NCBI GenBank assembly: GCA_023703575.1
Contig: CP097969.1
Location: forward strand, 1,273,517 to 1,337,516
Source of the DNA: SAR86 cluster bacterium
GTDB lineage: Bacteria; Pseudomonadota; Gammaproteobacteria; Magnimaribacterales; Magnimaribacteraceae
DNA length: 64,000 bases
Direction of reading: 5' to 3'
The position numbers and the translations under genes were made by a program. Shown here in pieces: positions 5,589 to 43,138 of this stretch. Numbering within the stretch: the first letter of the stretch is position 1; each line of letters starts with the position of its first letter. The notes under the pieces were generated by a model. The model made no database searches. It was not told the origin of the DNA and was given only the letters and a program-made list of their open reading frames with translations.

Positions 5589-5712
5589 TAACTCAACGTT
5601 ACTATTTATTTAAAACCTGGTCTAGAAATTAATGTAGAATTAACTTGTTGATTTGGCACAGCTTGCGGACATAAACAGCTAAAAGTGTCTCTTATATTCT
5701 GTAGGAGGAAAT

Positions 5713-5946: not shown

Positions 5947-5948
5947 TT

Positions 5949-6720: not shown

Positions 6721-6734
6721 ATTTATTCCTTAAT

Positions 6735-7922
6735 TTATTTTTCTTTGTTCCAGTTATTTACCCTGTATGAATAAGATAGACTTTCTAGATCGTCTTCTTT
6801 TGGATCCCAATTTTCAATTAAATTAATTGAACTAGAAAGGACGCTGTACTCACCTTCATTTATTAGGATATCTTGAGAGTGAACAATAAAAAGATCTGAT
6901 CTATTGGCAGTAGTTCTTGCATTATCTACTTCGTTTCTTGTCAGCAGCACATGACTTCCATCTAAAGTTGTTCCCTTCACTTCCACTTCAATAATCTCAG
7001 TTCCTTTTGAACATTTATAATCATATCCAAGATTCCTTAATCCCGAACAATCATCTACTTCGTATCCTAAATTTGTATAGTGCTCAAAGGCTTTTTTCAT
7101 GGCGTGAAGTTCAACGAGTTCTTTCTTCTTTAGATCTCTTATAAATCCTTTTGTAGATTTTCTATTAGAGTTTTCCTTTTTTACTGAAATTTGAGGCACT
7201 CTTACAATTTCATTTGGTTTCCAGTTGTAAAGCTCATATAAAGACTCATTTGGTTCTTCTTGAAATTCCAATAATTCAAAATGAAATTGTATTGGAGATG
7301 CTTTGTCATCGTAATTCACAGGGTTTAATGAGCCCACATACACAAAGTCACCTTTTTTATTTAAACGGCAAAATAAATAAACTGGTATGCCTTCAAGAAT
7401 TTTTTTTATATATGTAGTTTCAAGTGTATCCCTATTCCTTGCTTCCCAAAAAAAGTCAGAAGCGTCAAAAAAATCATTAAATTTTAGATCTTCTTCTGCA
7501 TCTGTTTTATCAAGGTTAACAAATAGAAGTTGAGCATTTGCCAAACTTGCTATGCCCGTCCATGGCTCTCTGGGTCCTTTTGATTCTGACAGACCAGAAA
7601 TTACTCTTATATCTTTCTTTTTATATAAATTTCCTACTTTGAACAGAGAGATATCAATTGTTTCATCTAACCAGGTTATTGTGTCTGAGGGCTGCTTAAC
7701 TCTTCTTCGCCACTTACCTCCTCCCTTGCCATCAGAAGAAACAAACAAATCAGGATTATTTTTTTTGTAAGCATCACATTCACTGGCATGTTCATAGAGC
7801 CTTGCCCTAATACTTGGTTCGGGAGTGTCTCTAAATTTATTTACTTCTATGTAGATATCTTCAAGCTCTGCCTCTCCGCCTAACTTATCTACGGATTTAA
7901 CTATTAGATCTATAACTCTCAT
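6735..7922 (-). CDS. HARE-HTH / DUF3427-like / DUF3883-like protein, probable restriction or DNA-surveillance factor
   Basis: 395 residues from the ATG at 7922; the longer frame to 8033 lies over the upstream gene and is rejected because this ATG overlaps the upstream stop (TAATG) with GGAG in front. Three regions are seen. Residues 1-75 form a winged-helix HARE-HTH domain (LGGEAELEDIY, SIRARLYEHASEC, then LFVSSDGKGGGKWRR). About 95-220 resembles DUF3427 (DFFWEARNRDT, IPVYLFCRL, VYVGSLNPV). About 270-360 resembles DUF3883 (GYDYKC, then EVEVKG). D301 with E314-V-K316 matches the D...ExK layout of PD-(D/E)xK nucleases, an inference. HARE-HTH and DUF3883 are known from restriction systems and eukaryotic chromatin-related proteins. 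With its HTH partner this is best read as a defence or modified-DNA-sensing module; no methylase is nearby. Confidence 0.65.
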   Translation of the reverse strand: MRVIDLIVKSVDKLGGEAELEDIYIEVNKFRDTPEPSIRARLYEHASECDAYKKNNPDLFVSSDGKGGGKWRRRVKQPSDTITWLDETIDISLFKVGNLYKKKDIRVISGLSESKGPREPWTGIASLANAQLLFVNLDKTDAEEDLKFNDFFDASDFFWEARNRDTLETTYIKKILEGIPVYLFCRLNKKGDFVYVGSLNPVNYDDKASPIQFHFELLEFQEEPNESLYELYNWKPNEIVRVPQISVKKENSNRKSTKGFIRDLKKKELVELHAMKKAFEHYTNLGYEVDDCSGLRNLGYDYKCSKGTEIIEVEVKGTTLDGSHVLLTRNEVDNARTTANRSDLFIVHSQDILINEGEYSVLSSSINLIENWDPKEDDLESLSYSYRVNNWNKEK

Positions 7923-8116
7923 TATTTCTCCTCTACTGAACCAAATATACTTTCCCAATCTAGAGCATATCCCGTTAATCTTATTAATTCTTTTGCTTTG
8001 CTTATAGAGGGTTGTCTGTTGCCATATCTCCAAGATTTAACAGTATCTTTAGATACTCCTAATTCCTTGGCTAATGGTGCTTCACCTCTTTTTTCTATGT
8101 ATTCTTTTAATTTCAT
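7922..8116 (-). CDS. Cro/YdaS-like HTH regulator
   Basis: 64 residues from the ATG at 8116; the TTG at 8143 would add nine residues but has no ribosome site. The helix-turn-helix is LAKELGVSKDTVKSWRYGNRQPS (residues about 15-37), typical of Cro-like or YdaS-like DNA-binding proteins. It overlaps the start of the HARE-HTH gene by one base, so the two are translationally coupled. An imperfectly spaced inverted repeat CTAAT-N8-ATTAG at 8152-8169, just upstream, could be its operator (weak). Its role is probably autoregulation and dose control of the downstream nuclease-like gene, as with restriction controller proteins. Confidence 0.7.
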   Translation of the reverse strand: MKLKEYIEKRGEAPLAKELGVSKDTVKSWRYGNRQPSISKAKELIRLTGYALDWESIFGSVEEK

Positions 8117-8186
8117 CTGTCTTCTTTGATATTTGTTTTCCAAACTTTTAGCTAATTAATAAACATTAGTTTTAAAAGTAAATTGA

Positions 8187-8405
8187 TCATTTTATTCTCC
8201 ACAAGCGGTAGCTATTCTCCGATTCCTTTCTAAAAGAAAACTTTCGGTTTATAAAATGCTTGGTATAGAAATTACCTCTATATCTATACATTTCATCTTT
8301 ATTTAGATTGCCAATGCTATCTCCCACTTCAAGTTTATCCAGAGTAGCAGTAAATTCTTTATAAAATCTTCTAGTTGGTATGTTTTTATCTATTTTAAAT
8401 TTCAT
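8187..8405 (-). CDS. Small unknown protein ending in a YRLWRIK motif
   Basis: 72 residues, basic, no membrane segment. The order KLEVGDS, NRKFSFRKE and a terminal YRLWRIK resembles short phage or plasmid-type proteins with a C-terminal VWRI signature (tentatively DUF7303-like). Function unknown. Its start overlaps the end of the 182-residue coiled-coil gene by 11 bases, so it is the last member of the ECF-controlled operon that begins at 11795. Confidence 0.5.
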   Translation of the reverse strand: MKFKIDKNIPTRRFYKEFTATLDKLEVGDSIGNLNKDEMYRYRGNFYTKHFINRKFSFRKESENSYRLWRIK

Positions 8406-8943
8406 ATTTCTTTATTAGCTTTATCTTCATTTGTTCAATTGATTGATCTATTTCCTTGAGGGCCTCATCTGTAAACCTGGGAAAGATTAATTGAAACTCT
8501 TTTTTGATATTTTCTGAGTTTTCGTTAATCTCTCTTCTCTCGGTTATATCTATAACCTTATTAGTTGCTTTAAGTTCTGCAATTTTCTTCCATGCCATAT
8601 GTCTTATAAATTCCTTAGTAGTCAGCTTGATAAGAAGGTCATCAATTTCTTTAATGCAATCAAATTTGGGTTTTGAGTAATCACCAATCTGGAGATATTC
8701 TTCTAATAGGTCTACATACTCATTGTTTTTAAGAACTAGCGCATTATATTCGTCTGACCACTCATTCAGTACCTGATTCTGATGCTCTATATAGAACTCA
8801 GCCTGATCAATATACTCCTTCTGTTGATCTATCAAAGAGATGAGCCTCTTATTAGTTTTTTTATAGATCCCAAGTGAAAAAAAAGTGAAAAGAATAAAAC
8901 CTAAAACCGAGAAACAAATAAGAATGATCATTAATTCAAGCAC
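8395..8943 (-). CDS. Membrane-anchored coiled-coil protein, unknown
   Basis: 182 residues from a GTG one base after the upstream stop (an ATG four codons in is the alternative). One N-terminal membrane helix (about 5-26) is followed by a long helical, charged region (28-182) with heptad-like patterns and no cysteine cluster. The Lys/Arg-rich segment after the helix suggests that the bulk is cytoplasmic. It lies between the trypsin-like protease and a 72-residue gene in the operon led by the 516-residue protein. No family recognised. Confidence 0.5.
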   Translation of the reverse strand: MLELMIILICFSVLGFILFTFFSLGIYKKTNKRLISLIDQQKEYIDQAEFYIEHQNQVLNEWSDEYNALVLKNNEYVDLLEEYLQIGDYSKPKFDCIKEIDDLLIKLTTKEFIRHMAWKKIAELKATNKVIDITERREINENSENIKKEFQLIFPRFTDEALKEIDQSIEQMKIKLIKKYEI

Positions 8944-8944
8944 T

Positions 8945-9589
8945 TTAAGAACCTAAAAATTTTATTATTTCTGTAACAGTAACTGCGTATGTAATACCCT
9001 GACTTTCGGTATTCATAAAAGTATTTATACCAACTACATTTCCAAAATTATTGAGTAAAGGACCGCCAGAATTACCAGGATTGATAGGTGTTTGCATTTG
9101 GTACACATCGCCTTTGAATTGTACTGCCTCTGTTTTCCAAGAATAATCATCTCTAATGGCGCTGATATAGCCTTTAGTATATGACCAGATTTCACCATTA
9201 GGATGTCCTATGGCATGGACAGCTTCACCAATTTCTGGAATTATCTGACTGATACTAGCTACACTCATATTATCAGGTTGAGAAGTGAGTTTTATGAGTG
9301 CCAAATCAGAGGTTGCATTGTATTTTATGACTTCAACTTCTCTTAAATTCTCTTCAAAGCCACCTTCCCCAATGGTTAAAACCTTAAGATTTGGATTATT
9401 TTCAACTACATGCCAATTGGTTAGGACGTAACCACTAGAGGAGATAATTACTCCTGAGCCAATTGCTTCATCACCAAATATTGCAACTACAGACGCAAAG
9501 GCATTGTCGTAAATATTTATTTCCTGAGACTTTATTAACAGCGACATTAATAAAGAAAACGAAATTATTAAGAATTTTATATAGTACAT
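8945..9589 (-). CDS. Exported trypsin-like serine protease (S1 family, no PDZ)
   Basis: 214 residues. An N-terminal hydrophobic signal (1-20) predicts export to the periplasm. The catalytic triad is complete: H60 in TNWHVV, D95 in SDLALIKL and S174 in PGNSGGPLL, with GSGVIIS preceding the His as in HtrA/DegP proteases. Unlike DegP or DegS it stops directly after the protease domain and has no PDZ domain, so activation must come from elsewhere. The start overlaps the upstream gene by 13 bases. It is the third gene of an operon under two copies of the local ECF motif. Plausible substrates are the anti-sigma factor or the neighbouring membrane proteins, but this is inference. Confidence 0.85.
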   Translation of the reverse strand: MYYIKFLIISFSLLMSLLIKSQEINIYDNAFASVVAIFGDEAIGSGVIISSSGYVLTNWHVVENNPNLKVLTIGEGGFEENLREVEVIKYNATSDLALIKLTSQPDNMSVASISQIIPEIGEAVHAIGHPNGEIWSYTKGYISAIRDDYSWKTEAVQFKGDVYQMQTPINPGNSGGPLLNNFGNVVGINTFMNTESQGITYAVTVTEIIKFLGS

Positions 9590-10248
9590 TTTGACATTGC
9601 TCCTATGAATTCTTCCTTTGAAACTCCTAAGTCTATTTTCATACTAGGTGTATGAGTCTTAGTATCTCTTTTTCCTTCATCTATTCTGATGAGAGATATG
9701 GTCCGATCAATGCCATCTGTTCTATAAAGTTCTGCATAACAATAGGAACGTACAGGAGGTGATTCGGGAGAATCAAATTGCCTTCCTGTAACAACTTCAT
9801 ATATTTCTTCACCATTGAATGGAACACTATCAAATATTGTGTAGTGTCTTACCCCTGATTGTTTTTGGTTATTACTAACAATGCTGGATGGAATGTTGTT
9901 GCTTTGACTAGCTAAAATTTCTTCTACATTGATCAATCTATCTTGATCCTGCGACTCAACTACCTCGGTTGCTTGTTCATTATCGGGAACGTAATGCGAT
10001 CCATTTCTTGTTTCTATATTTTCATTAATTGTTACAACTTCAAAACTTCTGGCATGACTAATGCCTAATCCGAGACTGTAAAAAAGTATAGCAAGGGCCA
10101 AGATTATTCCACCTACCATAAGAACTCTGTAAGGAGCTTCTTTGATAAAGTTTCTAACTTTTTGACTTTTTGTCTTTTCTGCTTCTCTTAAAGACATCTG
10201 GTTTAAGTAGTTCTCTACTGCAGAGTTATCATGAATTTGATTATTCAT
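9577..10248 (-). CDS. Single-pass membrane protein with periplasmic domain, unknown
   Basis: 223 residues: a short cytoplasmic N-terminus (basic KTKSQKVRNFIKEAPYR just before the membrane), one helix at about 42-64, then roughly 160 residues predicted periplasmic. Two cysteines in the exported part (RSYCYAEL and MSKCTI) could form a disulfide. Residues 70-130 look linker-like, rich in Asn, Gln and Glu. No family recognised. It overlaps the 516-residue gene by 4 bases and the protease by 13, so the three products are made together and probably act together. Confidence 0.55.
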   Translation of the reverse strand: MNNQIHDNSAVENYLNQMSLREAEKTKSQKVRNFIKEAPYRVLMVGGIILALAILFYSLGLGISHARSFEVVTINENIETRNGSHYVPDNEQATEVVESQDQDRLINVEEILASQSNNIPSSIVSNNQKQSGVRHYTIFDSVPFNGEEIYEVVTGRQFDSPESPPVRSYCYAELYRTDGIDRTISLIRIDEGKRDTKTHTPSMKIDLGVSKEEFIGAMSKCTI

Positions 10249-11795
10249 TTAACACCTCCTAAAAGTGATTGATTGGTGTTTGTAGTAAATGTAGCGTTTT
10301 CAAGCGGAAGTTTGCTTATCTCGGTTGGAACAGGCACGGAAACAAATTTAGTAACTTCGTAAGGAGTTGGAACTTCTACTGTCTCGTAGATTTTCTTTTC
10401 AACTTCAACCTCTACAATCTTTTCAACTTCTTTCTCAACTTCTTTAATCTCCGTAACTATCTTAGGTTTGGTAAGTCTCTTCCTGAGTGAAACAAGCATT
10501 TTGCTAAAAGATCTATTCAAGGTTGAACGTTTTGAAGATTTTTCAATCTTTAAGTTCATGGAGCAGTATGCCAATAGAGGGCCTGCAATAGCCACGACCA
10601 ATGCTATGGAGAATACAAAAATTAAGGAGATAGTTCCTACTTGTTTCTCGGTTAAATCTGCAGCAGATGGAACTTCATATATTCTAGAAGCCATTCTGTG
10701 AATAAATGAACCCTCAGCAGACTCTGATAGTAACTTTCTTGCATCAATAAGCTCTTGTTCAAGAATATTTTTTGCCTGCTTTTTTTGATTAACGATAGAT
10801 ATTGACTCTTTAGCTTCAGCTAATTGTCTTTCAAGCATGTTATTAGAACTTTTAATGAGATCTTGCTTTTCAGACTGTAATTTCAGAATTGATGCAGAGA
10901 CTTCTGCCAATTGATCTATTTTTGTTTGTGAAGGTTTCGTTAATAACGTTAGTTGCGTATTGATACCTTCAATTTGTTTAAGGTAGAAAGCGCTTTTCTC
11001 GTCGTAGCTTGTTCTTAGATCATTTTTTTCTTGCTTAATAATTTCACGCCTTTCTTGAAATCTCTTAATTATTTTGCTGGTAAACATGGAGTCAGAAATT
11101 TCTTTCTGTTCATCTTGATTCAGTTGAGATAATTCATCATTGAGCTGCCTCAAAGATTCATTAAAACTTGATAAAGCTTCTGAACGTGCCGTTTCTAATC
11201 CTTTAATTTGTCTCTTCAGCTCTTGAATTTCATTAGTATCTTTTACGGCTGATAACTGAAGCTCCCTTTTTCTTAATTCTTTAATCTGTTCATTAAGAGG
11301 ATTAAGCGAACTTTCAAGGTTTAGTTTTGAATTGGCATAAATTTGTTCTTGCGTTAAAGATTCTTTATCGGAGATTTCTCTGGATATATTAGCTATCTGC
11401 TCATTAAGATTTATAACAATGGATCTATTGTCTTTAATTTCATTTTCTCTATTTGTAACATTCTGCTCTAGTCCAGTAGACATGGTTTCAAAAGTTAAAA
11501 CACATACACATAAAAGGAATAAGCCAGAAATTAACTTTGTTGATAGAGTTCTTGAAAGTAAGAAAACATTAACTGTGGGAATTTTTGAAAGCTCTACAAG
11601 AGCTACTGCAACAAGTACAAGTAGTCCTACTAGGATGTCTGGTGAGGATACAGTTTTTAAAGTAACTTCCTCTAAATGAGAAGTAGACAAAGTAAATGCT
11701 ATAAATAAACCTGTTGTGCAAAAGATTATCTCTAGAAGCCAAGCCATATTTAATAAAGTCTTAGATTCTTTAATTTTGATTTCGTTATAATCCAT
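10245..11795 (-). CDS. Four-helix membrane protein with long periplasmic coiled coil and a KEVE-rich tail
   Basis: 516 residues. Three N-terminal membrane helices (about 16-38, 54-76, 88-110), then some 270 residues of heptad-patterned coiled coil rich in Glu, Gln, Lys and Leu, a fourth helix (about 388-412), and a C-terminal tail. The positive-inside rule puts the N-terminus and tail in the cytoplasm and the coiled coil in the periplasm. The tail contains KEVEKEVEKIVEVEVEKK followed by Val-Pro repeats. I do not recognise the family; it resembles a scaffold or tension-sensing component. It is first in the operon and is preceded by two copies of the ECF motif (11828-11856 and 11901-11929). Confidence 0.6.
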   Translation of the reverse strand: MDYNEIKIKESKTLLNMAWLLEIIFCTTGLFIAFTLSTSHLEEVTLKTVSSPDILVGLLVLVAVALVELSKIPTVNVFLLSRTLSTKLISGLFLLCVCVLTFETMSTGLEQNVTNRENEIKDNRSIVINLNEQIANISREISDKESLTQEQIYANSKLNLESSLNPLNEQIKELRKRELQLSAVKDTNEIQELKRQIKGLETARSEALSSFNESLRQLNDELSQLNQDEQKEISDSMFTSKIIKRFQERREIIKQEKNDLRTSYDEKSAFYLKQIEGINTQLTLLTKPSQTKIDQLAEVSASILKLQSEKQDLIKSSNNMLERQLAEAKESISIVNQKKQAKNILEQELIDARKLLSESAEGSFIHRMASRIYEVPSAADLTEKQVGTISLIFVFSIALVVAIAGPLLAYCSMNLKIEKSSKRSTLNRSFSKMLVSLRKRLTKPKIVTEIKEVEKEVEKIVEVEVEKKIYETVEVPTPYEVTKFVSVPVPTEISKLPLENATFTTNTNQSLLGGVK

Positions 11796-11827
11796 ATCTA
11801 TCTCCGATTAGTTGTTTCATAATGAAT

Positions 11828-11856
11828 TAACGAGCAAATGAACAAATTGTTACAAA
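11828..11856 (-). promoter_or_regulatory. ECF-type promoter, proximal copy, driving the 11795 operon
   Basis: Read on the minus strand: TTTGTAACA, 14 bases, TCGTTA, ending 33 bases before the ATG at 11795. The same two blocks at the same spacing occur at three other places in this island, all pointing at genes. The -10 block TCGTTA with a TGTAAC -35 block fits the ECF sigma pattern of an AAC-containing -35 and CGT-containing -10. Assignment to the ECF factor encoded at 15556-16038 is inference. Confidence 0.7.
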
Positions 11857-11903
11857 CTTTCTTCAAATTTTTACACTGTTATTCATACGGGTTATACAAA
11901 TAA
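11838..11903 (+). other. Upstream open reading frame of 21 codons before the CHAT gene
   Basis: An ATG at 11838 opens a 21-codon frame that ends at TAA 11901-11903, seven bases before the CHAT start. Its first residues MNKLLQTFF echo the CHAT protein start MHRLLQIGL because both lie in the direct repeat. It may be only a by-product of the duplication, or a leader peptide coupling translation. If the sigma-70-like promoter at 11870-11898 is the only one used, this frame would not be transcribed. Confidence 0.3.
11870..11898 (+). promoter_or_regulatory. Possible sigma-70 promoter for the CHAT gene at 11911
   Basis: TTTACA at 11870-11875 and TATACA at 11893-11898 are separated by 17 bases. The predicted transcript would start about 6 bases before the ATG, so the mRNA would be almost leaderless. 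It points away from the two ECF motifs in the same region. Confidence 0.4.
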
Positions 11904-11929
11904 CGAGAAAATGCATAGATTGTTACAAA
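11901..11929 (-). promoter_or_regulatory. ECF-type promoter, distal copy, overlapping the CHAT start codon
   Basis: Minus-strand TTTGTAACA-N14-TCGTTA, identical blocks and spacing to the copy at 11828-11856. It reads leftwards to the operon at 11795 with a leader of about 100 bases. Because it covers the first codons of the divergent CHAT gene, RNA polymerase bound here could interfere with CHAT transcription. Confidence 0.65.
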
Positions 11930-14922
11930 TAGGACTAATCTTCTTTGCGAGTTATTCCCTTGAGGTCTACTCCGAAGAAGCATGCGGCATAACATTTGAA
12001 CGGGATTGTAGTGAAAAAGAGATTTATCTACTCATAGACGAGTCCAATGAGGCCGATAGAGTTGGCGATCTACTGTTACATCAAGAACTACATAAAAAAG
12101 TCAAAATACGATGTGAAGAAGCTATCAGCGAGCATCTAAAACTTGTTTGTAGAGGTTATGCTTTTCAAGATCGGGCAAGGAGCGCAGAAACAGAAGATGA
12201 TGACTTAAAATTTATGGAGGATATGAAAAATTTCATTTCAGACTTTCAAAAACTCAACTATTTTCACACTGATTTTATCTACTACTATCGTGTATTGATG
12301 AATTACAGAGTTTATGACGAGAATTTGTATGAATACATAAAAGAAATAATCTTTCTGTCTAAGCCTGTTTCGGAAGATATAAATTCAAAAGAATATCTCC
12401 ATGCTTTGGCCGTATGGTATGACAATTACAAGGCCATCATTCAAGATACTGAAGAAGATGAAGAATTGATAATTAAGACCTACGAAAAGCTACTGGATAT
12501 TTATGCAAAACTGGATGGGGAAAAATCGGATGACTACTTGCGTACAAAACTTAATTTAGCTTATTACTACGAAGGTTATTATTATCTTGATATGTCCTAT
12601 CTGACTAAATCCTATGAAATATGTGCCGATATTATTTTAACCACCGATTTTGAAGACTATATTGATACTCATCTGAGTTGTTGGCTTCATCTTGACTCAC
12701 TAGAGTGGGCTAAGGATTCTGGCTCTACTCAAAAAGGCTACTACTACAGAGTTTATTTAGAGAGTTATTTTAAGGCACTTTCTGAATATGACTTCTTTGA
12801 TATATATATGGATGAATTTTTTCTAGATTCATTTCCAGCTCACTTCTCACAATTATCTTGTTATGAGAGACAAAATGCATGGAATATTTATCAGGATTTA
12901 TGGGAAATAAGATGGGCCAGATACACTGGAGAAGGATCTTTAGATAATAAAAGAGAGGATTATGAAAGTCTTGGGGCAGATATATCTATTTCTGCTGATG
13001 CTCTCCGATGTTCAGAAGATGGGATGGATGAATCTCTGGTGGAAGACCTAATTTCTGATCTTTATTCATCAATCAACGAATCATTTAATGTTGATATTGA
13101 AGAATCGGATATAGGAGAACTTTTTACCATTTCAGATGCTATTGAAGTTCTGTCTTTCCATATATCTAATGATGAATATCAAGAACTGCTACTAAAACAC
13201 TATCAAAGAGTAATAAAAGAGGCTGAGTATGCTGAGGAGCATTCACAAGCATCCGCAAACTTAATTTACGGGTTAGAAATGTATCTTGGCTATGAGAAAG
13301 CCGATAAAAAAGAGATTCTCAGACACATCCAAAGGATAAAAGACCGATTCATTGAAGCAGTTACTGATATTGGTCTAGATTCAGATGATACAGTAGTTTT
13401 TGATGTCTTAACTAAGGGGTTGTATGGGAATGGGTTTAAAGATGAAGCGTTTAAAAATTATTTAGAAATGTTTTCGCTTGCTCCACTAATGATAAATAGT
13501 GATTTGGATCCTTTTTTAGGTGATGCATTTCATGCAGATACAAGATTGACGATGAATTCTCTAATATTAAATGATAAATTTTCAAAGCTTGTTTATGAAG
13601 ACTTATTTGCAAATCTAAAATATTTAGACAGAGGACCTCTGGAATTGAGCATCATTAAATCAAAGCTATCTGATGGCCTAGGTAAACAGGCCTTGGAAAA
13701 CTTTCTTAAATCTGAAAGGTTAAAAAATCGCTTTATTAACGAATACTCTGAAGGGAAAGTCAGCACAAACTCTTCAGAAATATCTCAAAAAAATATATTC
13801 AAAAGTATTAGGCAATTTAATAACCTAAGCACATCCCAAAAATCAGATATATATTTACTTTTGTATCCTGAAATCTCTTTAGAAAAAATCAAATCCAAAA
13901 TTAAGGAAGATGAAACATTAATCCTCTTATATAGATTTTCAACAGGACCAGTATTTTCTAATTCAACCAAAAACTTCATTACCTCAATAGCCGTTAATAA
14001 GTCAGGAGAAAGGATAGAAATAAAGGAAGTAACTAAGATTAATGGTATTGATTTTTATGAGCTTATAGATTCAATTGAAGAAGAGATGAAACAATCTCTG
14101 TTTGACGGAAATAAAAATTATATTAAAAAGATAGACGCATTATCTAAAGTAATTATTCCTGATATTGAATTGCAAGATAAGATCATCTTTATCTCTAATT
14201 TGGATGAATTTATTTCCCCAAGCCTTCTTAGAAAAGAAAATAAATGGCTTATTGAAGAAAAAGAAATAAAAGTAAACTTTTCTTTGGTGGATTTCCTTAC
14301 CGAGGAGCAAGTGAGTTTTAACATACCAACAAATTACATTGGGATTGGAGGTGCAGATTACTCTGGATATGGAGAAATTTATGATCCTCTGCCTAATACA
14401 AGCTTAGAGATAAAAAATAGCAGTCTAAATTTTCAGAATAAAACAATCTTTTTGGGCAAAGATGCTAATGAAACAAATCTTAAAAATTCAGATTTACATA
14501 ATGCATTAGTGCACTTTGCAACTCATACAAGCAAATCTCAGGATTTAGATAATCAACTGCCGTCAATTGTTCTTACAAAGAACAAATTGGATGACGGATA
14601 TCTTGATGTTTTTGAAATTTCTGAACTTAATTTCAATGACTCTCATATTGTTCTAGCAGCATGTGATACAGATTCATCTATTTATGAAGATTCAGATAAT
14701 TTCTCTGGATTCGTTAAATCTTTTCAAGTTGCAGGAGCAAGAAGTGTATTAGCAACTAGATGGGAAATTGAAACAGCTTCAGCTCAAAAAGTTACAGAGT
14801 CTTATATTGAAAAGATTAAGAATAAACGCAATCCTCAAAAGGCTTTAGCTGAAACACAAAGAGAATTAATTGATTTGAATTACCACCCTTTCTTGTGGTC
14901 AGGCTATTTTGTTATTGAGTAA
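11911..14922 (+). CDS. Exported CHAT-domain (caspase-like) protease with helical repeats
   Basis: 1003 residues. A signal peptide (1-21, ending near VYS) predicts export. Residues about 25-640 are acidic, Tyr/Leu-rich and helical, compatible with degenerate TPR-type repeats. The C-terminal CHAT domain (about 670-1003) has the catalytic dyad intact: H872 in HFATHTS and C918 in VLAACDTD, followed by the characteristic GARSVLATRWEIE and WSGYFVIE end. CHAT proteins are clan CD cysteine proteases related to caspases and separase; known partners cleave a dedicated substrate. It lies divergent from the coiled-coil/trypsin operon, and its 3' end overlaps the convergent anti-sigma gene by 11 bases. 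The likely target, the anti-sigma factor or a membrane neighbour, is inference. Confidence 0.85.
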   Translation: MHRLLQIGLIFFASYSLEVYSEEACGITFERDCSEKEIYLLIDESNEADRVGDLLLHQELHKKVKIRCEEAISEHLKLVCRGYAFQDRARSAETEDDDLKFMEDMKNFISDFQKLNYFHTDFIYYYRVLMNYRVYDENLYEYIKEIIFLSKPVSEDINSKEYLHALAVWYDNYKAIIQDTEEDEELIIKTYEKLLDIYAKLDGEKSDDYLRTKLNLAYYYEGYYYLDMSYLTKSYEICADIILTTDFEDYIDTHLSCWLHLDSLEWAKDSGSTQKGYYYRVYLESYFKALSEYDFFDIYMDEFFLDSFPAHFSQLSCYERQNAWNIYQDLWEIRWARYTGEGSLDNKREDYESLGADISISADALRCSEDGMDESLVEDLISDLYSSINESFNVDIEESDIGELFTISDAIEVLSFHISNDEYQELLLKHYQRVIKEAEYAEEHSQASANLIYGLEMYLGYEKADKKEILRHIQRIKDRFIEAVTDIGLDSDDTVVFDVLTKGLYGNGFKDEAFKNYLEMFSLAPLMINSDLDPFLGDAFHADTRLTMNSLILNDKFSKLVYEDLFANLKYLDRGPLELSIIKSKLSDGLGKQALENFLKSERLKNRFINEYSEGKVSTNSSEISQKNIFKSIRQFNNLSTSQKSDIYLLLYPEISLEKIKSKIKEDETLILLYRFSTGPVFSNSTKNFITSIAVNKSGERIEIKEVTKINGIDFYELIDSIEEEMKQSLFDGNKNYIKKIDALSKVIIPDIELQDKIIFISNLDEFISPSLLRKENKWLIEEKEIKVNFSLVDFLTEEQVSFNIPTNYIGIGGADYSGYGEIYDPLPNTSLEIKNSSLNFQNKTIFLGKDANETNLKNSDLHNALVHFATHTSKSQDLDNQLPSIVLTKNKLDDGYLDVFEISELNFNDSHIVLAACDTDSSIYEDSDNFSGFVKSFQVAGARSVLATRWEIETASAQKVTESYIEKIKNKRNPQKALAETQRELIDLNYHPFLWSGYFVIE

Positions 14923-15559
14923 CTTCTAAAATTGACGAGTTCTGTCCACTCTTACAAATAGAAAATAGCTTTTGCTCATTTATAGATTCAAACTCAGCTA
15001 AAAAGCATTTTGATTCAGCATTTATAGTAGCTTCTTTAGTAATCTGCAGCGTGTAATCCTTATCGCCGTAACTACCTTTTGCTTTTTGCTTTCCTTCTTT
15101 GATCAGGTTCATAGCCACATTTTTGACTTGATTCAAGAAATCATCTGATTCTCCTGAACGAAATACAAGGATGTCTTGTTCATATTCAGCCTGAGCAAAT
15201 TGAGAATTTGTATCTTGAAAACCAGCCATGCTGTTTGTACCTAAATTGAAGAACAACAATCCAGATAAAGCATAACCGGCAATGGCCTGAGGAATAAAAA
15301 AGTTTTTTAAGATGGATTTTAGTGAAACTTTCTTTTTGGGTTTCAAGTCGTCCACAAATGATTGAAAGTTTTTAAACTCATTTGAATTTAAAGCTTCTTG
15401 AAAAAAAGATTCTGTTTGATTATTAATTTCTTTGATTTTATTTAAATAATTAAATGCTTCACTATCCTCTTTAATCAAAGACTCTACATAAGAGTTCTCC
15501 TCTTGTGTCAGTTCATTGTCTAAATAAGCAGAAATTAATACTTTATCTTGATCATTCAT
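14912..15559 (-). CDS. Transmembrane anti-sigma factor
   Basis: 215 residues from the ATG at 15559, which overlaps the sigma factor stop (ATGA). The N-terminal part (1-70) has the anti-sigma pattern (ISAYLDNELTQEE) without the HxxxCxxC zinc motif. One membrane helix lies at about 87-105 (PQAIAGYALSGLLFF), and about 110 C-terminal residues, with two Cys, are predicted periplasmic. This is the RseA-like layout: the cytoplasmic part holds the sigma factor and the periplasmic part receives a signal or protease cut. It is co-transcribed with the sigma gene and overlaps the 3' end of the CHAT gene by 11 bases. Confidence 0.8.
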   Translation of the reverse strand: MNDQDKVLISAYLDNELTQEENSYVESLIKEDSEAFNYLNKIKEINNQTESFFQEALNSNEFKNFQSFVDDLKPKKKVSLKSILKNFFIPQAIAGYALSGLLFFNLGTNSMAGFQDTNSQFAQAEYEQDILVFRSGESDDFLNQVKNVAMNLIKEGKQKAKGSYGDKDYTLQITKEATINAESKCFLAEFESINEQKLFSICKSGQNSSILEVTQ

Positions 15560-16038
15560 ATTGCTAACCCCATGCACTCTGAAAGTTTATTTCTAGCTCT
15601 GCAAATTTTTGTGCGTACATTTGCACTACTTATATTTAGCTCTTCTTCTATCTTTTGGTATGAATGAAATGGAACCATGGACATTAGCTCTCTTTCTTCT
15701 TCTTCTAACTCCTCCAAACACTTTTGAAGATCTACAGAGATCTCAATACCCTTATCATGCCCCAATACTTCTACTTCAGGAGTTTCTTCACTTAGTATTT
15801 CAGTCCTTCTGGTGCGCATATCTAAAAATAGATTTCTTGCAATTGTGTATAGCCAAGGTTCAATATTATTTCCTTCAAATTGATCTATCTTCTCTAAAGC
15901 CTTAGTAAAAGTCTCTTGAGCTATATCTTGTGCTTCTTCTTTATTCATAGTGAGGGAGTAGCACCGGCTGAAGATCTTCTTATTAAGCTCATAACTTTCT
16001 TCTTTAGAATTTAATATCTTTGTAAGCAGATCCACCAA
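15556..16038 (-). CDS. ECF-family RNA polymerase sigma factor
   Basis: About 160 residues. Region 2 is clear (EEAQDIAQETFTKALEKI, then WLYTIARNLFLDMRTRR, residues about 32-78) and region 4 follows (LEEEERELMSMV...YQKIEEELNISSANVRTKICRARNKL, 109-153). There is no region 1 or 3, as usual for ECF factors. The only in-frame starts after the upstream stop are TTG (16038) and GTG (16035), so translation probably begins at a weak non-ATG codon. The gene is preceded by the ECF motif at 16092-16120 and should be autoregulated. The anti-sigma gene overlaps its stop. Confidence 0.9.
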   Translation of the reverse strand: MVDLLTKILNSKEESYELNKKIFSRCYSLTMNKEEAQDIAQETFTKALEKIDQFEGNNIEPWLYTIARNLFLDMRTRRTEILSEETPEVEVLGHDKGIEISVDLQKCLEELEEEERELMSMVPFHSYQKIEEELNISSANVRTKICRARNKLSECMGLAI

Positions 16039-16091
16039 AACAATCTAACAAAGTATGCAAATGATGAAAAGTTATATTCATATGAAATCTT

Positions 16092-16120
16092 TAACGAATA
16101 ACTATCCAATATGTTACAAA
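16092..16120 (-). promoter_or_regulatory. ECF-type autoregulatory promoter of the sigma/anti-sigma operon
   Basis: Minus-strand TTTGTAACA, 14 bases, TCGTTA, about 54 bases upstream of the sigma gene. It is back to back with the rightward copy at 16138-16166; the two TTTGTAACA blocks form an inverted repeat across the AT-rich spacer at 16121-16137. Confidence 0.75.
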
Positions 16121-16137
16121 TTTTTTTAATTATTTTT

Positions 16138-16166
16138 TTTGTAACACCTGATGAATTTGTTCGTTA
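16138..16166 (+). promoter_or_regulatory. ECF-type promoter of the DUF4258 operon
   Basis: Plus-strand TTTGTAACA, 14 bases, TCGTTA, ending 7 bases before the ATG at 16174. Transcription would start at or within a base or two of the ATG, and no Shine-Dalgarno sequence fits in the gap, so the mRNA is predicted to be leaderless. Confidence 0.75.
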
Positions 16167-16173
16167 ATTAACT

Positions 16174-16455
16174 ATGAATATTAACTTTACAAATCACTCA
16201 AGATCCAGAATGCAGCAAAGAGGTATATCAAAAACTGCTGTAGAACACATAATCAAACACGGAGACTGTCATTTTGATGGTCATGGAGGAAAAATATATT
16301 TTATAAAAAAGAAAGATAGGGATTACCGAACATCTGACTTGCCTAAAAGTAAATTTGACTCTATCAAGAAACAGCTTAATGGATATGTCGTAATTTCTGA
16401 AGACTCTGATGTTGTTATAACTGTGGGTCATAAATATAAAAGGAGGAGAAGTTAG
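16174..16455 (+). CDS. DUF4258 family protein (RelE-fold toxin-like)
   Basis: 93 residues, basic. The N-terminal HSRSRMQQRGIS motif, a central Gly/Phe strand region and the final VVITVGHKYKRR strand are typical of DUF4258, a family with the small RelE/ParE-like RNase or toxin fold. No usual antitoxin is seen; the next gene encodes a cysteine-rich protein that might play that part. It is under the ECF motif at 16138-16166, with a probable leaderless mRNA. A stress-induced RNase is plausible, but catalytic residues are not conserved enough to claim activity. Confidence 0.7.
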   Translation: MNINFTNHSRSRMQQRGISKTAVEHIIKHGDCHFDGHGGKIYFIKKKDRDYRTSDLPKSKFDSIKKQLNGYVVISEDSDVVITVGHKYKRRRS

Positions 16456-16458
16456 AAG

Positions 16459-16839
16459 ATGAAAAAATTTTATCATTGCAACAGTTTTCGAGAAGCAAAA
16501 AAAATTGCGCAAAGGCTATCTATGCAGCATAAAAGATCGTGGTATGTCAGTAGAATTGAGGGACAATGGTTAGTCCGATTACCTCCTTTAAAGTGGCAAT
16601 GTGGTGGAGGACAATTTACCTTTCACTGTTTAAGTTGCAGTAATAAAGATCAACCAATTAATCAAGAACAGGTGATTTTAAAGGCCAGAGATGAAGGGGA
16701 AATTTTTAAATGTTACAAATGTGGGTCTAGTACTTATAGAATTTATGATAAAAAAAACAAGCTATATGATGAATATTATCCAGAATTAGAAGAGATGTGG
16801 AGAAGAGAAGATTACCCAGGAGAATACGACGACTACTGA
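16459..16839 (+). CDS. Cysteine-rich (zinc-knuckle-like) protein, unknown
   Basis: 126 residues. CLSC (about 56-59) and CYKC (about 89-92) form a possible four-cysteine zinc site, with a lone Cys before it; the C-terminus is acidic and rich in Tyr, Glu and Asp. The N-terminus is basic (REAKKIAQRLSMQHKRSW). It lies three bases after the DUF4258 gene, so the two are co-expressed under the ECF promoter. It might be a nucleic-acid-binding partner or antitoxin of the DUF4258 protein; no family recognised. Confidence 0.6.
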   Translation: MKKFYHCNSFREAKKIAQRLSMQHKRSWYVSRIEGQWLVRLPPLKWQCGGGQFTFHCLSCSNKDQPINQEQVILKARDEGEIFKCYKCGSSTYRIYDKKNKLYDEYYPELEEMWRREDYPGEYDDY

Positions 16840-16925
16840 AAGCTACTTCAACAATCTTTTAGTTTGCCTTCCAAAAATTTATTGTTTCACAATTATGATC
16901 ACAATTTTCTCTGTTACAAGAATGG

Positions 16926-19900
16926 TTATTTCCCTAAATATATGTAAGGGGCCCAATAAAAAGGATCTTTATAAGACTCTCCAAAATCTCCGTTAATAAA
17001 GGCTTGAGACACCTGTTGCAAAGAATTGGTAATATTTGAATTATTGATACCTCTAAACAATTCGCTATTAAATTTTGAAGCTGAGAGAGATTCAATTTCC
17101 CACATTGTCGTATACACTCCTTTTGCACCGCCAAGAAAAAAGGCCTGTGCAATGCCAGAATAGGCTTCTTTATCTATATGAGACGAATCAAAAGTTTTGC
17201 AGGCTGATAGAGCAACTATAGATCCTGAAAAATTATTTTCTGAGATATCAGATATTTTTAGTATTCCTGATTCTTGATCATTAACTGGAGTTAAAACCAA
17301 TCCAGGTTCCTCCGAAATAGAATTGCCGTATGGTAAAGAATGTGTTGCAAAATAAATTAAAGAATCAGAATGGAAATTTTTAAGACTTTGAAAATTTTTC
17401 TTAGTTGCATTCATGCCAAGCAAAATCATTTTTGAGTCAAATTCTGTGGATATTTCTATTATCTCTTCCTGTGTTTCTGGTAATGAAGCTAGCTGAGAAA
17501 GATCTGTGATATTTCTTGTCTTAAAGACTTCATTTTCTAATGCATCAAAAAATGGATCTCCTACACCAAGAAAATTAAGGGGACTGTTTTCACTTGTCAG
17601 ATTTAGGAAAGAACTAAGAGAAGGTAAATAGCTGACTTCAAAATTCTCTGATAAATATTTATTCTTATAATTTAAAGCGTGAAAGGGAATATACTTCAAA
17701 ATACCTTCAGAGATGATGTAGACCTTTTTAATTGAATCAAGTGAGCTAAGATCATAAATAACTTGAGAAAGATCATTGGCGTGTTTTCGATTTTGATTTA
17801 TGTATTTAAAATTTGAAAATTCGTCATAAACTTTTAAAACCTCTGTATCCGATAATTCATAACTTCTTACTGTGACCATATCTCCATATATCCTAAAAAC
17901 AATTCTTCTTTCACTGCTTTTGATAGAAAAATGATATTCGAGAACTTCATTTTGCTTAAGATTTTCTCTAATTCTGTCAATCAGCTTGTCATTACCAATA
18001 GTTTTTTGATCGGTAAATTTATCTAAGACGTCATTTAAATAATTTCGATTAGAGTCTTGTTCAAATCTTAAATTTCTAATTTCATTTTGGTCATAATCTT
18101 CCACTAATGTTAAGTAGTTATTGATTCTAAAATTTGAGGCAAATATTTTCTTAATTTTAGAAATAACACCACTTTCAAGCATCTCATCATTAATGTTTAC
18201 CCTATTTAAGCTTAAAGACTTATCAAAGTCGTTTTTCTTCACCTTCATTATCATTTCTAAGGTAGATGCCGGAAAACTGAAAAAGTCATAATTTCCTGAA
18301 TAATATTCATATTTATCATGAGCAACTATAGCGGCATGCAAAAGCATAAGCAGTTTGTCTTTAAGATAATGGCTCTCTATTGTCTGAAAAAAAGAATCTT
18401 TAGGCGATAACGTATAAATTATGCCAGCTGATCTTGCAAAAAAAGTATAGAACTCTAACAAAATTTTTGAGTGCTCTTTTTTTTGTTCATCATCATCAAA
18501 AAAAATATAACTATCTGAAATATGGTAAAGATTCATGAATTTCTGAATTGCGTCACATTCTCTAACTTGATTCTCAATTGAAGAGGTATTCTTAGAGAGA
18601 CAGTCTATAATTTCTTCATTTGTAGGAAAAACAATCTCGGTATTTTTAAAAAAGTCAGTAGCAAATTTTTTGTTTTCTTCAAAATTTAAAGTCATTTCAG
18701 CGATCCTAAACAAAATTCCTTCATTTCCAATGTTATTAATATTAATTTCTTTTGGGAGATCAACTAGCATTGATTGGATCATTTTTGAAACTTGTTTCAT
18801 CATTGTCTTGCATTCATCAGAACCATTTCTACATTCCTTCAAAAATAGATCATTTGAAGCTTGATGATCAATATTTACGTCAGAGCCTGACAAGATAAAG
18901 GTAACATCGGACTGTATTTGTTTAGATTCATCATCAGGGAGAGATCCCAATAGAGTGTAAGTATCCCCGTATGGATTAATCAACGTCTTATAAAAATTAT
19001 CAAAATTAGTTTTGTAAATCTGATCATTTTCATATTTTGTAAAGATCCTATTTACATTTTCCATAGTTTTATATTTTGTAGGAAAACAGAAAGTATCAAT
19101 AAAATTTCTCGTAATTGCATGAATCCTTTTATCATCTCTTAGCTTTGTAAAGGTTTCCTCATCACAGAGTTTATTTTTTTCTTGAAAGCTTTCAATTAAT
19201 ACATAACTAAAAAGGTCATCTTGAATATATTCATATTCGCTAATATCTAACTCTTTATTATTAAAGATAAGATAGAACAAGCTAATTCTTAAGTTTTGAA
19301 TACTATTAAGATCTAATGAACCTTCCGCAGTTATGTTTTCGATTTCATGTAAAAGATTAGAAATTGTCCAAATTTCAAATTTACCCGCATACATTTCAGG
19401 ATTTAATGAGTTTACAAAAAGGGTAGACTCCGAGATTATTTCATCAGTTTCACCGGAAAGAATCAGGGCTGAGAGCTTAATAATTTTCAACTGCAAGAGT
19501 ATTGGAAGATTATTATTAGGGATAATCTCATTTTCTTTGAAAGAATTGAAGACGACTCTCTCAGCATAATTTATTAGATCTACAGCAATGGTTGGATCTC
19601 TTATATATTGAACTTGATATGTAGCTAATTCTTTTATAAGACTTGCAAAATAAAGTTCAGAATCAAGTCTGAAGCTTTCTTTTTCAAGATCATCCATATG
19701 AATTATGAACGTGTCGACTATGTTTTCTATTTCACCATTTTCATAGAGTTGAAATAGGATTTCTGGAAAAAATATTAGAAAATATTCAAATGTTCCTCTT
19801 TCTAATTCTGGATCAGTTAAATTTCTTAAATTTTTTGAGAAATTCACCAAATCATTAAAAAGTACCATGTTATTCGGGTTTTGGATCTTTGTTTCACAAA

Positions 19901-20063
19901 AAACTTTCAAAGTTTTTTCTTGATACAGATACTCAGTAGTAACTTGCGGAAAGAATTGATCAAGATATCCTTCATCACAAAAGTCTAAGGGTTCTTCTGC
20001 GAGGAAAGAGCCAGGAAAAAGCAATAAAATTAAAATAAGGTATCTCTTATTTTTTAGTGTCAT
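16926..20063 (-). CDS. Second exported CHAT-domain (caspase-like) protease
   Basis: 1045 residues from the ATG at 20063 (a TTG at 20072 is the longer alternative). A signal peptide (about 1-22, LILILLLFPGSFLAEE) predicts export. Some 650 residues of acidic, Phe/Ile/Asn-rich helical sequence precede a C-terminal CHAT domain. Its dyad is intact: H908 in YFATHS and C955 in ALSACKT, then GGAKGVYTTMWEIE and YWAPYIYLG. It is a distant paralogue of the CHAT protein at 11911-14922 with the same size and layout. No ECF motif is seen upstream; its start lies about 60 bases after the tRNA-Ala gene on the same strand, so it may be read from the tRNA promoter or constitutively. It could act as sensor or initiator while the other products are induced. 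Confidence 0.85.
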   Translation of the reverse strand: MTLKNKRYLILILLLFPGSFLAEEPLDFCDEGYLDQFFPQVTTEYLYQEKTLKVFCETKIQNPNNMVLFNDLVNFSKNLRNLTDPELERGTFEYFLIFFPEILFQLYENGEIENIVDTFIIHMDDLEKESFRLDSELYFASLIKELATYQVQYIRDPTIAVDLINYAERVVFNSFKENEIIPNNNLPILLQLKIIKLSALILSGETDEIISESTLFVNSLNPEMYAGKFEIWTISNLLHEIENITAEGSLDLNSIQNLRISLFYLIFNNKELDISEYEYIQDDLFSYVLIESFQEKNKLCDEETFTKLRDDKRIHAITRNFIDTFCFPTKYKTMENVNRIFTKYENDQIYKTNFDNFYKTLINPYGDTYTLLGSLPDDESKQIQSDVTFILSGSDVNIDHQASNDLFLKECRNGSDECKTMMKQVSKMIQSMLVDLPKEININNIGNEGILFRIAEMTLNFEENKKFATDFFKNTEIVFPTNEEIIDCLSKNTSSIENQVRECDAIQKFMNLYHISDSYIFFDDDEQKKEHSKILLEFYTFFARSAGIIYTLSPKDSFFQTIESHYLKDKLLMLLHAAIVAHDKYEYYSGNYDFFSFPASTLEMIMKVKKNDFDKSLSLNRVNINDEMLESGVISKIKKIFASNFRINNYLTLVEDYDQNEIRNLRFEQDSNRNYLNDVLDKFTDQKTIGNDKLIDRIRENLKQNEVLEYHFSIKSSERRIVFRIYGDMVTVRSYELSDTEVLKVYDEFSNFKYINQNRKHANDLSQVIYDLSSLDSIKKVYIISEGILKYIPFHALNYKNKYLSENFEVSYLPSLSSFLNLTSENSPLNFLGVGDPFFDALENEVFKTRNITDLSQLASLPETQEEIIEISTEFDSKMILLGMNATKKNFQSLKNFHSDSLIYFATHSLPYGNSISEEPGLVLTPVNDQESGILKISDISENNFSGSIVALSACKTFDSSHIDKEAYSGIAQAFFLGGAKGVYTTMWEIESLSASKFNSELFRGINNSNITNSLQQVSQAFINGDFGESYKDPFYWAPYIYLGK

Positions 20064-20124
20064 GAAATACAAATCTTAATCATCATTAAGATAATCATAA
20101 CAAATAAGTTTATCCGATGAATTG

Positions 20125-20200
20125 TGGTGGAGCCAGTCGGGATCGAACCGACGACCTCATCCGTGCAAGGGATGCGCTCTCCCAGCTGAGCTATGGCCCC
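20125..20200 (-). tRNA. tRNA-Ala(TGC)
   Basis: Cloverleaf read by eye on the minus strand. The acceptor arm pairs GGGGCCA with TGGCTCC and the CCA tail is encoded. The D arm is AGCTCAGCTGGGAGAGC, the anticodon loop CTTGCAC gives TGC, and the T arm holds GGTTCGATCC. It stands alone, not in an rRNA operon. Confidence 0.95.
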
Positions 20201-41691: not shown

Positions 41692-41693
41692 AC

Positions 41694-43040: not shown

Positions 43041-43138
43041 AATTATCCCAAAAAAAATTTTGCGGAATTATCAAGCATTTCAAACCAACTATAAAGTATA
43101 TTTAATGGATTTCTGATAACCTGTAAAATTTAGGGTTT

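What the first reader, a model, noticed from the sequence alone, without database searches (positions are those of the whole stretch)
8187..20063. Envelope CHAT-protease / trypsin / ECF-sigma island, a candidate undescribed signalling or defence system
Seen: two CHAT proteins of about 1000 residues with signal peptides and intact dyads (H872/C918 and H908/C955), an exported S1 protease without PDZ (H60/D95/S174), a membrane protein with a long periplasmic coiled coil, a one-pass periplasmic-domain protein, an ECF sigma/anti-sigma pair and a DUF4258/Cys-rich pair, all between 8.2 and 20.1 kb. Known: CHAT proteases usually act in the cytoplasm on a dedicated substrate; in type III-E CRISPR a TPR-CHAT protease cuts a partner that holds an ECF-like sigma factor. 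Here the CHAT proteins are exported and the anti-sigma factor exposes about 110 residues to the same compartment. Inferred: CHAT and/or trypsin cuts the anti-sigma factor or the coiled-coil protein in response to envelope damage or phage adsorption, freeing the sigma factor to induce the island. I know of no described system with this combination.
Basis: partly seen in the sequence, partly recalled or inferred. Interest (0 to 1): 0.9.

Follow-up and report, generated by a model that had tools for sequence, protein, structure and literature searches.

The report
Mobile protease-gated envelope sigma switch
A mobile gene island in a small marine bacterium carries a dedicated on-switch for genes (a sigma factor with its membrane-bound inhibitor), exported caspase-like proteases that may trip it, and a set of cell-envelope genes that it appears to turn on, perhaps in response to envelope damage or viruses.

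Summary
The genes are real and placed as described: two CHAT proteins with intact dyads, a PDZ-less HtrA-like trypsin, a one-pass protein, a coiled-coil membrane protein, an ECF sigma and an anti-sigma-like gene. They form one system. (1) A distant relative, G163, has six of these genes in one direction inside a 16.4 kb integrative element bounded by a 40-bp tRNA-Arg repeat. (2) TGTAACA-N15-CGTW sites precede the sigma, coil and DUF4258 operons; all whole-genome hits of that pattern lie in the island (4 of 4; G163 3 of 3). (3) The motif led to a third module (G111) with no CHAT but an exported MORN-caspase. In the order, CHAT (2 of 203) and caspase (1 of 202) occur only in the three genomes with the close coil protein. 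(4) Close relatives lack the 15.1 kb island at tRNA-Ala. The circuit is well supported by sequence. Protease action on the anti-sigma is inferred from Csx29/Csx30 and from DdvA, a transmembrane anti-sigma with a CHAT domain. Defence is untested. CHAT-ECF links were already in print (ECF54, DdvA, Craspase); this assembly I did not find. New variant of a known kind.

The parts
4993..20124 (.). 15.1 kb genomic island, GC 32.3% against 37.6% for the rest of the window, inserted directly after the CCA end of tRNA-Ala
   Evidence: gene 20257-20949, tRNA-Ala and gene 4491-4985 are adjacent in close relatives L133, L134, L135, L137; GC
20125..20200 (-). tRNA-Ala, integration site
   Evidence: empty sites
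8395..8943 (-). 182-aa protein with one N-terminal hydrophobic segment, last gene of the coil operon; no counterpart noticed after trypsin in G163 or G111
8945..9589 (-). exported S1 (HtrA-type) protease without PDZ, H60/D95/S174
   Evidence: 51% and 48% identical to the G163 and G111 copies
9577..10248 (-). one-pass protein, C-terminal beta domain 129-223 with conserved Cys170/Cys221
10245..11795 (-). membrane protein: 3 TM, long coiled-coil segment (about 280 aa, periplasmic by charge pattern, read by eye), TM, cytoplasmic tail
   Evidence: 40% identical to the G111 copy
11829..11854 (-). promoter motif TGTAACA-N15-CGTT for the coil operon
11902..11927 (-). second promoter motif upstream of the coil operon (overlaps the start of CHAT1)
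11911..14922 (+). CHAT1, exported CHAT protease (H872/C918); N-terminal part not similar to CHAT2 or the G163 CHAT
14912..15577 (-). anti-sigma-like protein: conserved cytoplasmic part, hydrophobic stretch near residue 100, variable C-terminal part with a Cys pair
15556..16038 (-). ECF sigma factor
16093..16118 (-). promoter motif for the sigma/anti-sigma operon (autoregulation)
16140..16165 (+). promoter motif for the DUF4258/Cys-rich operon
16174..16455 (+). DUF4258 protein
16459..16839 (+). Cys-rich 126-aa protein, no family over cut-off
16926..20072 (-). CHAT2, CHAT protease (H911/C958 from TTG) with a signal-like N-terminus (by eye) and a helical N-terminal arm

Best explanation
A mobile, envelope-facing sigma switch. 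A membrane anti-sigma holds the ECF sigma in the cytoplasm (inferred from gene order, a hydrophobic segment and a conserved N-terminus). An exported clan-CD cysteine protease (CHAT in the window and G163, MORN-caspase in G111) sits in the periplasm; its variable N-terminal arm senses a signal, and its protease domain causes loss of the anti-sigma, directly or by starting a cascade (inferred). Freed sigma transcribes from TGTAACA-N15-CGTW promoters (motif shown by sequence; use by this sigma inferred): its own operon (positive feedback), the coil/one-pass/HtrA-type-protease operon, and the DUF4258 pair. The response places a coiled-coil membrane protein, a one-pass protein and a serine protease in the envelope. 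The module travels on tRNA-targeted islands. The likeliest trigger is envelope damage, possibly by phage.
For: Same six genes in one direction in G163, and five of them plus an exported MORN-caspase in G111 (Peptidase_C14 E 6.5e-31). In the order, CHAT occurs in 2 of 203 genomes, caspase in 1 of 202, and the close coil protein in exactly those 3 of 203 (a fourth, distant coil in G092 has no sigma nearby). Promoter motif: 4 in the window against 0.03 expected; all 4 hits of the longer pattern in G000 and all 3 in G163 lie in the islands; the 18 other genomes of the genus have none. No such site before CHAT1 or CHAT2 in the window or before the caspase gene in the G111 stretch. Island at tRNA-Ala absent in close relatives; G163 element with an integrase-like gene (PHROG integrase E 3.9e-8; Pfam hits below cut-off) and a 40-bp tRNA-Arg repeat. 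CHAT2 model matches Csx29 (Z 27.1, 302 aligned, 3.2 A) and anti-sigma DdvA (Z 21.5, 394 aligned, 14.1 A); a CHAT profile hits DdvA by sequence, E 6.9e-7. Csx29 cuts the sigma inhibitor Csx30 (passages).
Against: No cleavage, binding or expression data. The anti-sigma is recognised only weakly by Pfam and my script called no TM in the window copy. Signal peptides of CHAT2 and the G163 CHAT were not called. Total motif hits are not above the reversed control: G000 4 against 4 and G163 3 against 2 for the longer pattern, 5 against 10 and 3 against 8 for the shorter; only clustering and position are unusual. In G163 CHAT lies behind sigma and anti-sigma and could be induced with them, against CHAT being always upstream. 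In G111 the caspase gene lies upstream of sigma, not where CHAT lies in G163, so 'replacement' is an inference from one genome that is 78% complete. The window and G111 share a recognisable anti-sigma C-terminal part (25% over 81 aa, z 7.6) although their proteases differ, while the window and G163, both with CHAT, do not (z 0.4). DdvA's match over the whole chain is loose, and its dyad was not checked. Genes moving as a block make the co-occurrence fewer independent events than it looks.
Confidence: 0.5

Rival explanations
1. The HtrA-type trypsin is the site-1 protease that cuts the anti-sigma, as DegS cuts RseA, and the CHAT/caspase protein is an effector that cuts other envelope or invading proteins.
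For: The trypsin is in all three modules and is the best conserved of the proteins compared (48-51%, apart from the G163-G111 sigma at 59%); its nearest families include DegS (E 3.1e-22), though Do/DegP is better (E 1.1e-31). CHAT is missing in G111.
Against: The trypsin operon is itself behind the motif in all three modules, so it is better placed as output or feedback than as first trigger. It lacks the PDZ domain that senses signals in DegS (DegS function recalled).
Confidence: 0.2
2. A mobile envelope-stress or niche-adaptation island with no role against phages.
For: Most parts face the envelope; ECF sigma factors mostly serve envelope stress (recalled); no known defence family fits the whole; no phage or plasmid relatives of the coil or one-pass proteins in the scans run.
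Against: Patchy tRNA-borne islands in small genomes, and clan-CD protease plus trypsin sets, are common in conflict systems (recalled).
Confidence: 0.35
3. Suicide system: sigma turns on envelope proteases that kill the cell.
For: Trypsin and a membrane coiled-coil protein are behind the motif; caspase/CHAT proteins often take part in cell death (recalled); in G163 CHAT could be co-induced with sigma.
Against: No site before CHAT1 or CHAT2 in the window or before the caspase in G111. No pore-forming or gasdermin match among the ten island proteins scanned.
Confidence: 0.15
4. Unrelated genes brought together by chance in a variable region.
For: Gene order in the window is scrambled over both strands.
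Against: Same set in two further genomes and a shared, island-confined motif.
Confidence: 0.02

Closest known systems
DdvS/DdvA (Myxococcus xanthus; anti-sigma DdvA, PDB 8rot, 8rw5)
   Same: ECF sigma held by a transmembrane anti-sigma, and a CHAT domain in the same pathway; the CHAT2 model matches DdvA (Z 21.5 and 20.4) and a CHAT profile matches its sequence at 841-958 (E 6.9e-7). The signal that inactivates DdvA is called unknown in PMC4374960 (passage). That 8rot is the Myxococcus protein is recalled from the name.
   Different: In DdvA the CHAT domain is part of the anti-sigma chain; here it is a separate protein, absent in G111 where a caspase is found, with a coil/one-pass/trypsin operon behind the motif.
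Type III-E CRISPR Craspase (Csx29-Csx30-CASP-sigma)
   Same: TPR-CHAT protease controls a sigma inhibitor, and sigma motifs lie in its own locus (passages of PMC10028731); same CHAT fold.
   Different: Craspase is RNA-activated with a Cas7-11 partner; here signal-like N-termini, a membrane anti-sigma, and no Cas match among the ten proteins scanned.
ECF54 sigma group
   Same: CHAT-domain, subtilase and carboxypeptidase genes in the neighbourhood (one passage of review PMC8999054).
   Different: [quoted passage not shown] here an anti-sigma-like gene is present. Sigma subgroup was not tested.
RpoE-RseA-DegS envelope stress response
   Same: ECF sigma, membrane anti-sigma, periplasmic HtrA-type serine protease.
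   Different: Trypsin has no PDZ and lies behind the motif itself; extra clan-CD protease; coil and one-pass proteins; mobile island.

Membership tests
CHAT protease family (PF12770) | CHAT domain over Pfam cut-off with His-Cys dyad | tested here: met
   111.6 and 131.6 bits against cut-off 24; dyads
CHAT protease family (PF12770) | protease activity | not testable with these tools
   needs an assay
DdvS/DdvA-type switch | ECF sigma plus transmembrane anti-sigma | tested here: inconclusive
   sigma met; anti-sigma by context and conserved N-terminus, Pfam hit below threshold, TM not called in the window copy but called in the G163 and G111 copies
DdvS/DdvA-type switch | CHAT domain fused to the anti-sigma | tested here: not met
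   separate genes
Type III-E CRISPR Craspase | CHAT catalytic fold of Csx29 | tested here: met
   Z 27.1, 302 aligned, 3.2 A, model 682-1048
Type III-E CRISPR Craspase | TPR arm | tested here: inconclusive
   N-terminal arm modelled as helical with low confidence; TPR_12 hit on CHAT1 E 0.095, below cut-off
Type III-E CRISPR Craspase | Cas7-11/gRAMP and CRISPR genes in the locus | tested here: not met
   no Cas model hit among ten proteins of the region scanned with PADLOC; the rest of the genome was not scanned for cas genes
ECF54 | sigma belongs to the ECF54 subgroup | not tested
   no ECF-group models at hand
ECF54 | no anti-sigma in the locus | tested here: not met
   anti-sigma-like gene overlaps sigma
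RpoE-RseA-DegS | periplasmic S1 protease with PDZ | tested here: not met
   214 aa, protease domain only, no PDZ hit
RpoE-RseA-DegS | second cut by an RseP-type protease | not tested
   -
Known anti-phage defence system | match to a described system as a whole | tested here: inconclusive
   protease-domain hits for the trypsin (best RT-Protease_XI, E 9.1e-19, then LmuA, HamA1, PDC-M35A, Avs1b) and weak hits for 6735-8033; none for the other eight proteins scanned

The most novel reading that the evidence does not exclude
An innate immune switch of the bacterial envelope: an exported caspase-superfamily sensor protease (CHAT or MORN-caspase, interchangeable) detects phage attack from outside the cytoplasm, destroys a membrane anti-sigma, and a dedicated sigma turns on an envelope barrier operon. 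The module moves between marine bacteria on tRNA-targeted elements.
Probability: 0.25. Interest if true: 0.92.

Novelty: new variant of a known kind. Interest (0 to 1): 0.72.

Why it matters
It would be an envelope-located counterpart of the CRISPR Craspase: a caspase-superfamily protease gating an ECF sigma factor through a membrane anti-sigma, with more than one kind of sensor protease and a defined regulon. The promoter motif and compact operons make it directly testable. A wider pattern (9 of 46 CHAT frames with a script-called signal peptide lie within 5 kb of a Pfam-confirmed ECF-size sigma, from 8 genomes, against 0 of 33 without one; hand-picked loci) suggests an under-described use of CHAT proteins.

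Tried and rejected
Chance assembly: rejected by G163, G111 and the motif. Known defence system: PADLOC gave no fit for the whole. Phage or plasmid origin of coil/one-pass: no relative in the scans of viral contigs (coil; one-pass), phages (coil) or plasmids (coil); CHAT1 none in viral contigs; CHAT2 only distant CHAT hits on plasmids, none covering 80% of it. Shared domain of anti-sigma and one-pass protein: hhalign probability 0.1, E 0.51. Simple co-divergence of the CHAT arm and the anti-sigma C-terminal part: seen for window-G163 but weakened by G111. One-pass fold: model mean pLDDT 58.6; no clear match (best Foldseek E 0.077, best Z 5.4), inconclusive. A long att repeat was not found for the window island or near the tRNA-Arg of the G111 stretch. 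DdvA's catalytic residues: the searches did not print that alignment. A viral-library fold search gave nothing below E 0.001. Three-sequence CHAT profile and coil profile against PDB sequences: nothing. Coil profile in 320 other genomes of a class sample: none. One-pass profile in 369 class genomes: the window plus one marginal hit (G286, E 8.6e-4), which I tried to read (one search failed) and did not follow.
Full report
WHAT IS THERE. The window is C1:1273517-1337516 of a 1.59 Mb single-contig genome. The genome has the look of SAR86 (recalled, not shown by a tool). The coil, one-pass, trypsin and 182-aa genes form one minus-strand run (8395-11795) with overlapping or near-touching ends; CHAT1 runs divergently from it; anti-sigma and sigma overlap (14912-16038); a DUF4258/Cys-rich pair runs divergently from sigma; CHAT2 ends the island beside tRNA-Ala.

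IT IS AN INSERTED ISLAND. I fetched the tRNA-Ala region from 14 genomes of the same genus. In four of the closest (L133, L134, L135, L137) the genes 20257-20949 and 4491-4985 lie on either side of tRNA-Ala with 23 bases between the tRNA and the second gene; the others have small or other inserts or differ in the genes there. The window therefore carries 15.1 kb of extra DNA (4993-20124), with GC 32.3% against 37.6% for the rest. I recognised no integrase in it and found no long att repeat.

A SECOND COPY. CHAT (PF12770) occurs in 2 of 203 genomes of the order. The second, G163 (the record of single cell 'Gamma proteobacterium SCGC AAA168-P09'; another family of the order), has sigma, anti-sigma, CHAT, coil, one-pass and trypsin in one direction. 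Identities to the window: sigma 37%, one-pass 33%, trypsin 51%, anti-sigma N-terminal part 41%, CHAT2 catalytic part 38%; coil 36-42% in pieces. The coil gene of G163 is broken into two overlapping frames. The module lies between an integrase-like gene (PHROG integrase E 3.9e-8; Pfam hits below cut-off) and an AAA_25 ATPase gene, in a stretch bounded by tRNA-Arg and a perfect 40-bp repeat of part of it, C2:55656 to 72062. Its GC (30.6%) hardly differs from its flank (32.0%).

THE MOTIF. Seven sites in the two islands read TGTAACA-N15-CGT. In the window they precede sigma/anti-sigma, the coil operon (two sites) and the DUF4258 pair; in G163 the coil operon, an exported-looking repeat protein upstream of sigma, and a run of four genes. 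Chance expectation is 0.03 in the window and 0.01 in L008. With TGTAACA-N15-CGTW, all 4 hits of the whole window genome and all 3 of G163 lie in the islands; 18 of 18 other genomes of the genus have none. With the shorter GTAACA-N15-CGT, 4 of 5 and 3 of 3 lie there. Totals are not above the reversed control (G000 4 against 4, G163 3 against 2; 5 against 10 and 3 against 8), so the signal is clustering and position, not number. A matrix made from the seven sites scores them 19-21 bits; the next best in the window is 11. No such site precedes CHAT1 or CHAT2. In G163 CHAT overlaps the anti-sigma gene and may be transcribed with sigma.

THE MOTIF FINDS MORE. Across the order the longer pattern occurs in 53 of 203 genomes. 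I fetched 17 hand-picked stretches at such hits outside the window and G163 (L192 was fetched for its coil and is not counted). 12 of 17 hold a sigma-profile hit followed by an anti-sigma-like gene with a TM segment (two of these anti-sigma genes were placed by position, not by profile, and the sigma of L178 is a short frame); 5 do not. One (L179, genome G111) is a full module: sigma, anti-sigma, coil (522 aa, unbroken), one-pass and trypsin, with sites at 7205, 8920 and 12152. It has no CHAT. Upstream of the first site stands an exported-looking 666-aa protein with MORN repeats (E 7.4e-22) and a caspase domain (Peptidase_C14, E 6.5e-31) with YAGH and DACR motifs; no site precedes it in the stretch. 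Its position (before sigma) differs from that of CHAT in G163 (after anti-sigma), so that it does CHAT's work is inferred. Caspase occurs in 1 of 202 genomes of the order, G111; the close coil protein occurs in G000, G163 and G111 only, of 203 (a distant coil in G092, E 2.6e-20, has no sigma nearby). So the three genomes with any CHAT or caspase are the three with this operon (1 in 1.4 million for three of 203 if independent; linkage makes the true number of events smaller, and the genomes are 50-97% complete). The other 11 sigma loci are smaller. In 9 of 11 a site stands directly before a 225-232-aa (in L178 broken, 109 aa) membrane-anchored protein; L185 has the protein without an exact site before it; the L186 contig ends first. 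A site stands before sigma in the same direction in L177, L178, L181 and L184; in L180, L182, L183, L185 and L186 a site near sigma points the other way; in L198 and L199 there is none.

WIDER PATTERN. In 370 genomes drawn from the class, 64 have CHAT. I fetched 80 CHAT loci by hand-pick. Of 79 CHAT frames of at least 400 aa (three rows from the window and G163 left out), my script called a signal peptide in 46; an ECF-profile hit lay within 5 kb in 13 of 46 and in 1 of 33 without a called signal peptide. A Pfam check of all 14 kept 9 ECF-size sigma factors (8 genomes) in the first group and none in the second (p 0.009); two were response regulators, one a 286-aa sigma-70 protein, two had no Pfam family. 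Eight of the nine have a protein with a predicted TM segment beside sigma. L059 and L109 also carry a caspase-domain protein beside CHAT.

STRUCTURE. The CHAT2 model has a good catalytic part (706-1048, blocks mostly 71-91 pLDDT) and an all-helical, low-confidence N-terminal arm; mean pLDDT is 54.7. Best solved matches: Csx29 (8d9g, Z 27.1, 302 aligned, 3.2 A), separase (5fc2, Z 26.0, 293 aligned, 2.8 A) and, lower, the transmembrane anti-sigma DdvA (8rot, Z 21.5, 394 aligned, 14.1 A). A CHAT-domain profile also reaches DdvA by sequence (E 6.9e-7, residues 841-958). That a known anti-sigma contains a CHAT domain is gene-fusion evidence that the two work together; its placement in the periplasm is recalled, not tested.

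VARIABLE PARTS. The N-terminal ~700 residues of the three CHAT proteins show no similarity above shuffles (z 0.1, 1.1, -0.7) while the catalytic parts do (z 61, 24, 36). The anti-sigma C-terminal part is recognisable between window and G111 (z 7.6) but not for the other two pairs (z 0.4, 0.8). These are the fastest-changing parts of the proteins compared, as expected of sensing surfaces, but the pattern does not simply follow the protease type.

MECHANISM. Shown by sequence: a conserved gene set in three genomes, island-confined motif, mobility (an island absent in relatives; an element with repeats in G163), caspase in the genome without CHAT. Inferred: that this sigma reads these sites; that the anti-sigma inhibits it; that the clan-CD protease triggers loss of the anti-sigma; that the trigger is envelope damage or phage. 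Because no site precedes CHAT in the window or the caspase in G111, while the trypsin operon has one in all three modules, I place the clan-CD protease upstream and the trypsin downstream or in feedback; G163 leaves this open.

KNOWN WORK. Ten paper searches in the open-licence library found: Csx29-Csx30-CASP-sigma (PMC10028731, passages); a sentence on ECF54 neighbours with CHAT (PMC8999054, one passage); DdvS/DdvA (PMC4374960, passages). The other listed papers I saw only as listings. None of the passages showed this assembly; the ECF classification paper I looked for by DOI was not held.

Noticed in passing
L177, L178, L180-L186, L198, L199: A smaller relative: sigma, anti-sigma and a 225-232-aa membrane-anchored protein, in 9 of 11 with a TGTAACA-N15-CGT site directly before that protein, in several genera of a sister family; neighbours by eye include DNA methyltransferases, and L183 has a large AAA/RNase_H protein.
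   Followed up: partly
L059 6776-12350; L109 4181-8410: Caspase-domain protein (PF00656), probably exported, beside a sigma (L059) or sigma-like (L109) gene and a CHAT protein in other Gammaproteobacteria.
   Followed up: partly
window 34756-45316: Giant exported repeat protein (2311 aa), a 448-aa TPR-like outer-membrane-type protein and a CHASE2-like adenylate cyclase gene side by side; judged by eye, no family search run.
   Followed up: no
window 6735-8033: Island protein with DUF3427 and NOV_C domains; weak similarity to defence proteins.
   Followed up: partly
window 4993-5244 and L192 13882-14115: Similar small two-TM proteins (by eye), one at the end of the window island, one near the distant coil gene of G092.
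   Followed up: no
L143 4962-9721: Another genome of the genus carries about 5 kb of different genes at the same tRNA-Ala, so the site is variable.
   Followed up: partly
L039 669-2198: A lipoprotein-like protein with peptidoglycan-binding and trypsin domains lies just after the module inside the G163 element.
   Followed up: partly
L008 13759-15325: The coil gene of G163 is split into two overlapping frames; assembly error or real damage cannot be told.
   Followed up: no
window 16140-16174: The site before the DUF4258 gene ends about 8-9 bases before the annotated ATG, so the transcript may be leaderless or the start lies further in.
   Followed up: no
L180, L182, L183, L185, L186: A motif site about 70-75 bases from the sigma start points away from sigma; whether it serves a divergent gene is unknown.
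   Followed up: no
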